Assembly (NCBI GenBank): GCA_019752635.1
Contig: JAIELX010000027.1
Span: 1 to 64,000 of the forward strand
From: Candidatus Obscuribacterales bacterium
GTDB lineage: Bacteria > Cyanobacteriota > Vampirovibrionia > Obscuribacterales > Obscuribacteraceae
Reading direction: 5' to 3'
DNA length: 64,000 nucleotides
The position numbers and the translations under genes are program-made. The notes beneath the pieces are model-generated. The model made no database searches. It was given only the letters and a program-made list of their open reading frames with translations, and was not told the origin of the DNA. Shown one piece after another: positions 6,121-8,225 of this stretch. How positions within the stretch are numbered: position 1 is the first letter of the stretch; each line of letters starts with the position of its first letter.

Positions 6121-7500
6121 ATGCAACGCCGGTTTCTCAGGCAGAGTCTGCTATGTGTGCTTGGTCTGGCTTCAGCGTTGCCGGCTAACGGCGTGGAGCT
6201 TGTAGGGGCTCCTGTCGCGGAGCCGGTGTCCATCACCGACAAAGGAGACCATTACGCTGTGGTGGTTGACTACGGTGATTCAGATCCGAGAAAAGTCGGT
6301 GAGAGTTACGGACGAGCAATCAACGCGAAGGTGCCCCAATTTGAGTCGCTGTGGGATTCGTATATAAAGGAATACGGGAGTAACTGGTTCGTCTACAAGG
6401 TGGTTCTGCGCCGGGTGCGGCAGATGAGAAAGCAGCTCTCCCCGGAGTATCGAGCGGAGATAGATGGCATTGCCTCGCAGTTGAGTGGTGGTCGCAAGAA
6501 TAGGGCGGGCGATGGAAAAGTTTCGCGAGACGAACTCTACTTGCTGAATGTCATCGCTGATGTTTGTCGTATGAACCAGTGCTGCGCAGTGTCGGTTTTT
6601 GGGGAAAGGTCAAAAGACGGGGAGACCGTGTGTGGGCGAAACCTTGACTGGCCTGACGGCAAGACTCATCAGTTGGCAAAACTGCAGGCTGCGATTACGT
6701 TCAAAAATGGAAACAAAACAGTGGTCAGCATAGCCTGTGTCGGCTTTCAAGGTGTCGCCACCGGATTCAATACCAGAGGCGTGTTTGCAGGAGTGCTTGA
6801 TTCTGGCACTGGCAGCAAGTATACCGCCCGCCATCGGCGGTCCTACCTTTTTGATCTGCGCGAGGCTTTGGAAAAGAGTGATTCTGTGCAGAGCGTCGCT
6901 GATTTCATGTCTGAAAAGAAGCGTAAGTATGCGTTCAATCATCTCGTATTTCTGGCTGACAAGCAAGGTTCTTCTGTATTGGAAAACAATTTCAGCGGTA
7001 AAGGCGAACATCTGAGAAGGGCATTACGGCAATGCGATTCTGAATTGAATCCAGGAATCACTTGGGGACTAAAGGATTCGATTGGTGCCGTTAACTGTTT
7101 CGCTTTGAAGGGAAACTGCGACAATCACATCGACCCCTTGGATTGGTCTGCCTACAAGAAAGGGCGAACTGATCGAGATATTAATACGCCGCGTTGGCGA
7201 AGTTTGAAAGAAAGACTTTCTGCGTGCGGCGATAAGGTTGATGCTGAAGGAGTTAAGTCTATTCTGTCGTTCTATCATCCTGAGAGTAGAGGAAATATCT
7301 ATCGAGGCGATTTGTACAACAGTTACACACTTCAAAGCGTAGTCTTCAAACCTTCTACTCTTGAGCTGGATGTGGGCTTTCGTCCGAAAGATGGACATCT
7401 GCCCCCTAAACCGTTGTTTCAGCGGATGGATACGGAAGTGTTCGCTGGCGTCGCCGCTGGTGCTGCGCCTGCCGATGAGCATCAGGCGCAGCACCACTGA
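6121..7500 (+). CDS. secreted Ntn-hydrolase (C45/acyltransferase- or choloylglycine hydrolase-like)
   Basis: 459 residues with an N-terminal signal peptide (RRFLRQSLLCVLGLASALPA). The motif NQCCAVSVFG (Cys154/Cys155) followed by CGRNLDWPDG (171-180) is the signature of the Ntn-hydrolase families typified by acyl-CoA:6-APA acyltransferase, peptidase C45 and acid ceramidase-like enzymes. A Cys becomes the N-terminal nucleophile after self-cleavage and the RNxDW element shapes the oxyanion site. Upstream helices (YGRAINAKVPQ, EIDGIASQL) match the propeptide region of that family. The expected reaction is hydrolysis or transfer at an amide bond; the substrate is unknown. Which of the two adjacent cysteines acts is not clear from sequence alone. 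The C-terminus ends in a Gly/Ala and His-rich tail. Confidence 0.75.
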   Translation: MQRRFLRQSLLCVLGLASALPANGVELVGAPVAEPVSITDKGDHYAVVVDYGDSDPRKVGESYGRAINAKVPQFESLWDSYIKEYGSNWFVYKVVLRRVRQMRKQLSPEYRAEIDGIASQLSGGRKNRAGDGKVSRDELYLLNVIADVCRMNQCCAVSVFGERSKDGETVCGRNLDWPDGKTHQLAKLQAAITFKNGNKTVVSIACVGFQGVATGFNTRGVFAGVLDSGTGSKYTARHRRSYLFDLREALEKSDSVQSVADFMSEKKRKYAFNHLVFLADKQGSSVLENNFSGKGEHLRRALRQCDSELNPGITWGLKDSIGAVNCFALKGNCDNHIDPLDWSAYKKGRTDRDINTPRWRSLKERLSACGDKVDAEGVKSILSFYHPESRGNIYRGDLYNSYTLQSVVFKPSTLELDVGFRPKDGHLPPKPLFQRMDTEVFAGVAAGAAPADEHQAQHH

Positions 7501-7529
7501 GGAACAACACGAGTTAATCGTTGGTCTTG

Positions 7530-7635
7530 CCCTGTAAGCGGAATCCCGAACTACAGTTGGTGTTCGAATTAAAACAGGGACCGGCGAAAGCCAGCCCCCC
7601 AGCGTCGATACGAAAGTGTCGGCGCTGTTTTTTTT
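7530..7635 (+). ncRNA. structured small-RNA candidate, copy 1
   Basis: A mini-hairpin with a GAAA tetraloop (GGC 7583-7585 with GCC 7590-7592) is followed by six unpaired C (7595-7600). An intrinsic-terminator hairpin comes next: CAGCGTCGA 7600-7608 pairs with TCGGCGCTG 7619-7627, capped by an inner AC-GAAA-GT, then eight T at 7628-7635. CCCTGT 7530-7535 can pair with ACAGGG 7574-7579 to close a 5' domain. The same layout recurs twice downstream. A C-rich single strand next to the terminator is typical of anti-Shine-Dalgarno sRNAs such as RsaE and 6C RNA. Function is inference. Confidence 0.5.
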
Positions 7636-7739
7636 GACGTGGTGTCAATGTGTGCGGACAATTTGTGATGCCGTTTCTCTCGGAACAAGTCGCGCGAAGT
7701 TGTTGTCTAACTATTCAGAGCAAGAGCGAAAGCAAAGGC

Positions 7740-7811
7740 TCGAAAACAAAAGAGACCAGCGAAAGCTGAACTCCCCTGCGCCAGAGCGAAAGTGCTGGCG
7801 CAGGTTCTTTT
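7740..7811 (+). ncRNA. structured small-RNA candidate, copy 2
   Basis: It has the same order of parts as copy 1. TCGAAAACAAAAGAGACC leads into CAGC-GAAA-GCTG (7757-7768), then CTCCCC (7771-7776). A terminator hairpin follows, in which CTGCGCCAG 7776-7784 pairs with CTGGCGCAG 7795-7803, with the loop core CGAAAGTG shared with copy 1, then GTTCTTTT. The stems differ in sequence between copies while pairing is kept, which supports selection on structure. A TCTCT at 7676-7680 may pair with AGAGA at 7751-7755, giving a longer 5' domain. Confidence 0.5.
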
Positions 7812-7902
7812 CGGACTTTTACGGCGGCAATGTCTTATGGTCACCGCGTGGAACATCTCTTGCGTAAGTCTGTCTATTCTAGGAGTAAGAGAAGGGTAAA
7901 AA

Positions 7903-7977
7903 CCTCGAATACAAAAGAAACAGCGGTTGCTGTTTGCCGCACCGGTCAGGATTCCTGTCCGGTGCGGTTCGCTCTTT
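7903..7977 (+). ncRNA. structured small-RNA candidate, copy 3 (divergent)
   Basis: CCTCGAATACAAAAGAAA resembles the leaders of copies 1 and 2. It is followed by ACAGC-GGTT-GCTGT (7920-7933) and a long hairpin in which CCGCACCGG 7937-7945 pairs with CCGGTGCGG 7959-7967, with an inner CAGG/CCTG helix, then TTCGCTCTTTG. The C-rich linker of the other two copies is missing and the tail is only moderately T-rich. The remaining bases to 8225 hold no gene I can support. Confidence 0.4.
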
Positions 7978-8225
7978 GATTGTTCGCAACAATACTTAAG
8001 GTCAAACTAAAACCTTCTGCACAAAATTGAATTAGCGGTATTCTAAAAATATGGCTCGCGGCTTGGTTCAAGCTAACCGGGAGATAGGGATTTCCGGAAG
8101 TCGGGCCATCTATTTTACAGGCGCTCAGGATCGTCGGCAAGCCTCCTGCCCTTCGCGCGTAGACAACGGCTCTACCCACACCAATCGAATAGACGCTGCC
8201 GGAACACGAGCTTCGTTGAATTCGC

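What the first reader, a model, noticed from the sequence alone, without database searches (positions are those of the whole stretch)
7530..7977. Three tandem C-rich hairpin elements: a possible small-RNA array
In a 700-base gap the same layout occurs three times at intervals of about 170-180 bases: a TCGAA-ACAAAAG-like leader, a small tetraloop hairpin, then (in copies 1 and 2) a run of C and a long hairpin. Copies 1 and 2 share the loop core CGAAAGTG and end in T-rich tails. The stem sequences differ between copies while pairing is kept, which is what selection on RNA structure produces. The C-run beside a terminator recalls anti-Shine-Dalgarno sRNAs (RsaE, 6C RNA, Yfr1), but I know no family with this exact form.
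Basis: partly seen in the sequence, partly recalled or inferred. Interest (0 to 1): 0.62.

Follow-up and report, generated by a model that had tools for sequence, protein, structure and literature searches.

The report
Three tandem stress-sigma-driven small RNAs
Three neighbouring copies of a previously undescribed small regulatory RNA sit side by side in a non-photosynthetic relative of cyanobacteria, each with its own stress-type (ECF sigma) promoter and terminator, which suggests that this lineage independently built the RNA arm of a cell-envelope stress response.

Summary
The repeat is real and is more than hairpins. It is followed by a transcript of about 95-100 nt: 5' hairpin, A-rich linker, small hairpin P2, C-rich stretch (w1, w2), terminator P3. 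A covariance model recovered 17 confident members in 11 genomes of nine genera of the window's family (Obscuribacterales), plus weak ones. It found none in 386 genomes sampled across the phylum apart from one coding false hit. No Rfam family matches. P2 and P3 covary strongly (14 of 18 pairs have double changes, 0/500 shuffles). The promoter pattern is present in 14 of 17 members, against about 1% background. Neighbouring genes vary and are often convergent, so these look like free-standing trans-acting sRNAs, not leaders. In one genus the SigG-like ECF gene itself has the same promoter pattern. Best reading: a new lineage-restricted family of ECF-dependent sRNAs, triplicated here, probably repressing mRNAs through C-rich anti-Shine-Dalgarno pairing, without a detectable Hfq. 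Transcription, the responsible sigma factor and the targets are inferred, not shown.

The parts
7501..7526 (+). w1 promoter-like element: -35 GGAAC (7501-7505), N18, -10 GTC (7524-7526); starts directly after the TGA stop of the 6121-7500 gene
7536..7635 (+). w1 predicted sRNA (about 100 nt; start inferred 9-10 nt after GTC)
   Evidence: R3 hit 7563-7636, 62.7 bits
7577..7597 (+). w1 hairpin P2 (GGG..CCC outer pairs, GAAA loop) followed by the C run 7595-7599
7600..7627 (+). w1 hairpin P3 (intrinsic terminator stem) with U tail to 7635
7682..7707 (+). w2 promoter-like element: GGAAC (7682-7686), N18, GTC (7705-7707)
7717..7811 (+). w2 predicted sRNA (about 95 nt) with 5' hairpin GAGC/GCUC
   Evidence: R3 82.9 bits
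7752..7773 (+). w2 hairpin P2 (GAG..CUC) followed by CCCC
7775..7804 (+). w2 hairpin P3 (terminator stem), tail GGTTCTTTT to 7811
7850..7874 (+). w3 promoter-like element: GGAAC (7850-7854), N17, GTC (7872-7874)
7884..7976 (+). w3 predicted sRNA (about 93 nt), without C run
   Evidence: R3 41.0 bits
7918..7935 (+). w3 hairpin P2 (AAACAGC/GCUGUUU)
7936..7968 (+). w3 hairpin P3 (terminator stem)

Best explanation
7501-7976 holds three tandem genes for members of one undescribed small-RNA family of Obscuribacterales. Each has its own ECF-sigma promoter (GGAAC-N17/18-GTC) and intrinsic terminator. Shown by sequence: the family exists in at least 9 genera, its hairpins P2 and P3 covary, and the promoter pattern is conserved in 14 of 17 members. 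Inferred: when an ECF sigma factor is released from its anti-sigma factor (candidate: the SigG-like ECF with a triple zinc-finger anti-sigma, i.e. envelope stress), these RNAs of about 95-100 nt are made. They then act in trans, without Hfq, by pairing C-rich stretches (CUCCCC/UCCCC) with purine-rich Shine-Dalgarno regions and so lowering translation of target mRNAs, probably for envelope proteins. Several copies per genome raise the dose or split the targets.
For: Homologs: BLAST E 6.5e-10 and 2.3e-9 in the second genome of the genus; models R1-R3 find members in 11 of 50 family genomes at E <= 0.01. Covariation: 14 of 18 pairs with double changes, score 0.387 vs 0.143+-0.019 in shuffles, 0/500, and slid controls far lower. 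Promoter: 14 of 17 members plus two weak hits (L073, L116) have GGAAC-N17/18-GTC; background 0.94% per 150 nt, and 1 of 16 rejected model hits. This is the pattern of known sigmaE promoters: E. coli sigmaE -35 GGAAC and -10 GTC, and GGAAC-N18-GTT (PMC10012870); GGAACTT (PMC8103513). The conserved 5' end (A)AAGAAC lies 9-10 nt after GTC in most members. Orthologous loci keep the RNA while flanking genes change or converge. In G013, G030 and G066 the SigG-like ECF gene carries GGAAC-N17-GTC upstream. Precedent: FoxI/FoxJ in Fusobacterium are sigmaE-dependent sRNAs with a C-stretch seed in a species lacking Hfq (PMC11005410).
Against: No transcript data. Members are related by descent, so the counts are not independent, and A7 was fitted to the modelled structure. 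Three members (G015, G016, G021) lack the promoter pattern. G000's own SigG-like gene lacks it too, and a stricter pattern scan of G000 shows no regulon (4 matches vs 9 in the reversed control). The C run is absent in w3 and its ortholog and is partly paired in w2. No target has been identified. Only about a quarter of family genomes have a detectable member.
Confidence: 0.62

Rival explanations
1. The units are only tandem intrinsic, possibly bidirectional, terminators between convergent genes and give no RNA of their own.
For: P3 plus a T tail is a good terminator, terminator-like sites exist on both strands, and the kinase gene downstream is convergent.
Against: Each unit has its own conserved ECF-type promoter, P2 covaries independently of P3, three tandem terminators are not needed, and a terminator would not conserve AAAGAAC or CUUUCUCCCCAGUACGG at the 5' side.
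Confidence: 0.1
2. They are cis-acting leaders (attenuator, riboswitch or T-box-like) controlling a downstream gene.
For: The layout of hairpins ending in a terminator is typical of attenuators; in some loci (L110, L112, L087) a gene follows in the same direction.
Against: In the window, L052/L077 and L114 the next gene is convergent or the next item is another unit; downstream genes are unrelated between loci; no aptamer family matches.
Confidence: 0.07
3. They are ECF-dependent sRNAs, but act by binding a protein (sponge or CsrA-like) or by a seed other than the C run, such as the 5' end or the A-rich linker.
For: The C run is missing in w3/278b and partly paired in w2. The A-rich linker ACAAAAGA is the most conserved unpaired sequence, and type B members keep CUUUCUCCCCAGUACGG near the 5' end.
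Against: C-rich stretches (CUCC/UCCCC) recur in most members at the same place although the surrounding stems change, as in other C-seed sRNAs (PMC4132741, PMC11005410).
Confidence: 0.18
4. A mobile or repeat-derived element (REP/MITE-like) that spread copies locally.
For: Several copies per genome in genus g1 and in G007 and G020.
Against: Only 4 copies in 9.2 Mb, orthologous positions shared between two species, no terminal repeats seen, and no match in the phage collection (plasmids were not searched).
Confidence: 0.03

Closest known systems
FoxI/FoxJ of Fusobacterium nucleatum (sigmaE-dependent C-stretch sRNAs, PMC11005410)
   Same: ECF (sigmaE) type promoter, conserved cytosine stretch, no Hfq in the host, more than one such sRNA per genome.
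   Different: No sequence relation seen; separate genes, not a tandem array of one family; targets of the present RNAs unknown; different phylum.
RybB/MicA/MicL of Enterobacteria (noncoding arm of sigmaE)
   Same: ECF-controlled sRNA with terminator.
   Different: Hfq-dependent with a 5' seed (own knowledge) and known porin targets; here Hfq was not detected and targets are unknown.
LhrC1-5 of Listeria (PMC4132741)
   Same: Multicopy sRNA family, envelope-stress linked, with CU-rich UCCC motifs and a terminator.
   Different: Controlled by the two-component system LisRK, not an ECF sigma; three UCCC sites in loops; no Rfam match here.
Yfr1 of cyanobacteria (PMC2190773)
   Same: Two hairpins, the second a terminator, with C-rich sequence between them; nearest phylum.
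   Different: Yfr1 is 54-69 nt with the invariant unpaired ACUCCUCACAC, absent here.
6C RNA (Actinobacteria) and RsaE (Firmicutes)
   Same: C-rich motif near a terminator.
   Different: No covariance match; the RNA studied here has an ECF promoter and a different hairpin plan.

Membership tests
ECF/sigmaE-dependent sRNA (functional class) | ECF-type promoter GGAAC - about 16-19 nt - GTC/GTT directly upstream | tested here: met
   14 of 17 members, background 0.94%; promoter definition from PMC10012870, PMC8103513 and PMC10771440
ECF/sigmaE-dependent sRNA (functional class) | expression depends on an ECF sigma factor | not testable with these tools
   needs RNA-seq in sigma mutants; partial hint from the same promoter on SigG-like ECF genes of one genus, not in G000
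ECF/sigmaE-dependent sRNA (functional class) | represses envelope mRNAs | not testable with these tools
   no target data
Yfr1 | unpaired ACUCCUCACAC between two hairpins | tested here: not met
   no exact match in 151 loci and none near the units within 2 mismatches in the window
LhrC | match to the LhrC Rfam model | tested here: not met
   no Rfam match at gathering threshold or, other than chance hits to unrelated families, at E <= 5
LhrC | UCCC motif in unpaired regions | tested here: inconclusive
   UCCCC unpaired in G001_12 and G000_C7, partly paired in w2, absent in w3
6C RNA / RsaE | match to their covariance models | tested here: not met
Hfq-dependent sRNA | host encodes Hfq | tested here: not met
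   PF17209 absent in 6 genomes of the family, all carriers; control genomes positive
cis-regulatory leader | co-directional gene immediately downstream in all loci | tested here: not met
   convergent genes or further units follow in several loci

The most novel reading that the evidence does not exclude
Obscuribacterales independently evolved a multicopy noncoding arm of an ECF (SigG-like) envelope-stress response: Hfq-free sRNAs with C-rich anti-Shine-Dalgarno seeds, with local amplification into a tandem array in which one copy (w3) has lost the C seed and may have changed targets.
Probability: 0.45. Interest if true: 0.66.

Novelty: new member of a known kind. Interest (0 to 1): 0.52.

Why it matters
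sRNAs run by ECF sigma factors are well studied in Proteobacteria and known in Fusobacteria (FoxI/FoxJ). A literature search found no sRNA described for Obscuribacter and no relevant one for Melainabacteria. A promoter-defined, covariation-supported sRNA family here would make it testable whether the noncoding arm of envelope stress control arises repeatedly, and would give a handle on regulation in large-genome, uncultivated relatives of cyanobacteria in which no Hfq was detected.

Tried and rejected
Leader pattern TCGAANNACAAAAG alone is not informative: 78 matches vs 81 in the reversed control and chance-level in the window. A conserved long-range pairing of the 5' GGAAC with the 3' GUUC was considered and dropped once GGAAC proved to be a promoter element. 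P1 pairing of ACAAAAGA with UCUUUUGU is possible in nearly all copies but hardly varies, so it is untested. Model hits in G176/G218 (L088, L089) lie in apparently coding sequence and lack the promoter pattern; G015b (L085) and L117 were rejected likewise. ECF regulon scan in G000 gave no excess. No upstream autoregulatory motif was found at ECF genes of G000. Low-threshold Rfam hits (mir-550, snoRNAs) are chance. The phage collection has no match.

Full report
OBSERVATION. The three copies exist as described. All three fold significantly better than dinucleotide shuffles (z -3.2, -3.9, -5.1). Local alignment of w1-w2 and w2-w3 exceeds all of 1000 dinucleotide shuffles; w1-w3 alone does not. 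Alignment of the whole intervals shows that the repeat is longer than reported: it begins at an invariant GGAAC about 55-60 nt upstream of the described leader. No Rfam family matches the window at gathering score or the region at E <= 5 except obvious chance hits; homologous loci give none either.

HOMOLOGS. The second genome of the genus (G001) has orthologs of w2 and w3 in the same order next to a convergent protein kinase gene (C278, 278a/278b), and a further member at C12. The latter is orthologous to a fourth member in the window's genome (G000:C7:83892-83968), beside a creatinase/M24-type peptidase gene. Covariance models R1, R2 and R3 of the 3' half (leader, P2, P3) find 17 confident members in 11 of 50 family genomes, nine genera. 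In 386 genomes drawn across the phylum, R3 found only G000 itself and one hit in apparently coding sequence. A pattern from the 'type B' members scanned over 84,980 named species returned five genomes, all recorded as Obscuribacterales, Melainabacteria, Obscuribacter or cyanobacterium SZAS-4.

STRUCTURE. On the 17-member alignment A7, 83% of cells pair, 14 of 18 pairs show a change on both sides, and the covariation score is 0.387 against 0.143+-0.019 in shuffles (0/500); slid versions are far lower. P2 alone has 4 of 7 pairs with double changes, so the support does not rest only on the terminator P3. A7 was aligned by a model with this structure, which leans towards it; A5, aligned with a model built from only six of its eleven members, gives the same result. 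A 5' hairpin is predicted in most members (GAAC/GUUC, GAGC/GCUC in w2, AAAGAAC/GUUCUUU in type B, AGAACC/GGUUCU in G020b and GAACC/GGUUC in G009), but it was not tested by a column count.

PROMOTER. In 14 of the 17 confident members, and in weak hits L073 and L116, the upstream region holds GGAAC, 17 or 18 bases, then GTC. The background rate in family DNA is 0.94% per 150 nt, and 1 of 16 rejected model hits has it (L065, which may itself be a diverged member). The E. coli sigmaE -35 and -10 elements are GGAAC and GTC, and actinobacterial sigmaE promoters are GGAAC-N17/18-cGTT (PMC10012870; see also PMC8103513, PMC10771440). Spacers differ freely between orthologs while both boxes stay. The conserved RNA 5' motif (A)AAGAAC starts 9-10 nt after GTC in most members, as expected for a transcription start. 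G015, G016 and G021 lack the pattern; by eye, G015 and G021 have TATATT or TGCTATGCT there, a possible switch of sigma class.

WHICH SIGMA. G000 encodes at least three ECF/anti-sigma pairs (L099, L100, L103). The SigG-like ECF L100 is followed by a protein with three zf-HC2 domains and a gene resembling LTXXQ/CpxP periplasmic proteins (by eye). In G013, G030 and G066 the orthologous ECF gene has GGAAC-N17-GTC upstream, suggesting that this sigma factor reads this promoter type. G000's own copy lacks it, and a stricter pattern scan of G000 shows no excess. The assignment is therefore a lead, not a result. The name SigG-like rests on resemblance recalled from memory, not on a tree.

FUNCTION. 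Orientation and neighbours vary: convergent genes, another unit, unrelated genes. That argues for trans action. C-rich stretches recur between P2 and P3 and, in type B, after the 5' hairpin (CUUUCUCCCCAGUACGG). They are unpaired in some members (G001_12, G000_C7), partly paired in w2 and absent in w3. C-stretch seeds that block Shine-Dalgarno regions are established for LhrC (PMC4132741), and a C-stretch seed is reported for FoxI/FoxJ (PMC11005410), which are sigmaE-dependent in a species without Hfq. No Hfq was found in six carrier genomes. The anti-Shine-Dalgarno mechanism is thus the most likely but unproven step.

LIMITS. There is no expression evidence, genomes are MAGs (G000 86% complete, 6% contaminated), member counts are not phylogenetically independent, and no target search was possible.

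Noticed in passing
window 8045-8115; ortholog L051 4868-4785 (-): A second conserved element between w3 and the convergent kinase gene (about 87% identical overall between the two species), able to fold into a closed three-way shape (AUGGCUCG/CGGGCCAU stem); single copy, no Rfam match. Unexplained.
   Followed up: partly
window 7451-7501: Near-perfect inverted repeat (GGTGCTGCGCCTG..CAGGCGCAGCACC) at the 3' end of the 6121-7500 gene, running up to its stop codon and ending immediately before the w1 promoter-like element.
   Followed up: no
L065 (G023:C5, minus strand, upstream of 114548): A rejected weak model hit carries GGAAC-N17-GTC followed by a short GGAAC..GUUCC hairpin and a terminator: possibly another ECF-driven sRNA.
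   Followed up: no
L100 (G000:C4:62481) and L138/L139/L142: SigG-like ECF operon with a triple zinc-finger anti-sigma and an LTXXQ/CpxP-like periplasmic protein in Obscuribacterales; an autoregulatory-looking promoter only in one genus.
   Followed up: partly
L059, L063, L064 (G015, G016, G021): Type B sRNA members without the ECF pattern; G015 and G021 show TATATT or TGCTATGCT at that place by eye, suggesting promoter-class switching of an sRNA gene.
   Followed up: no
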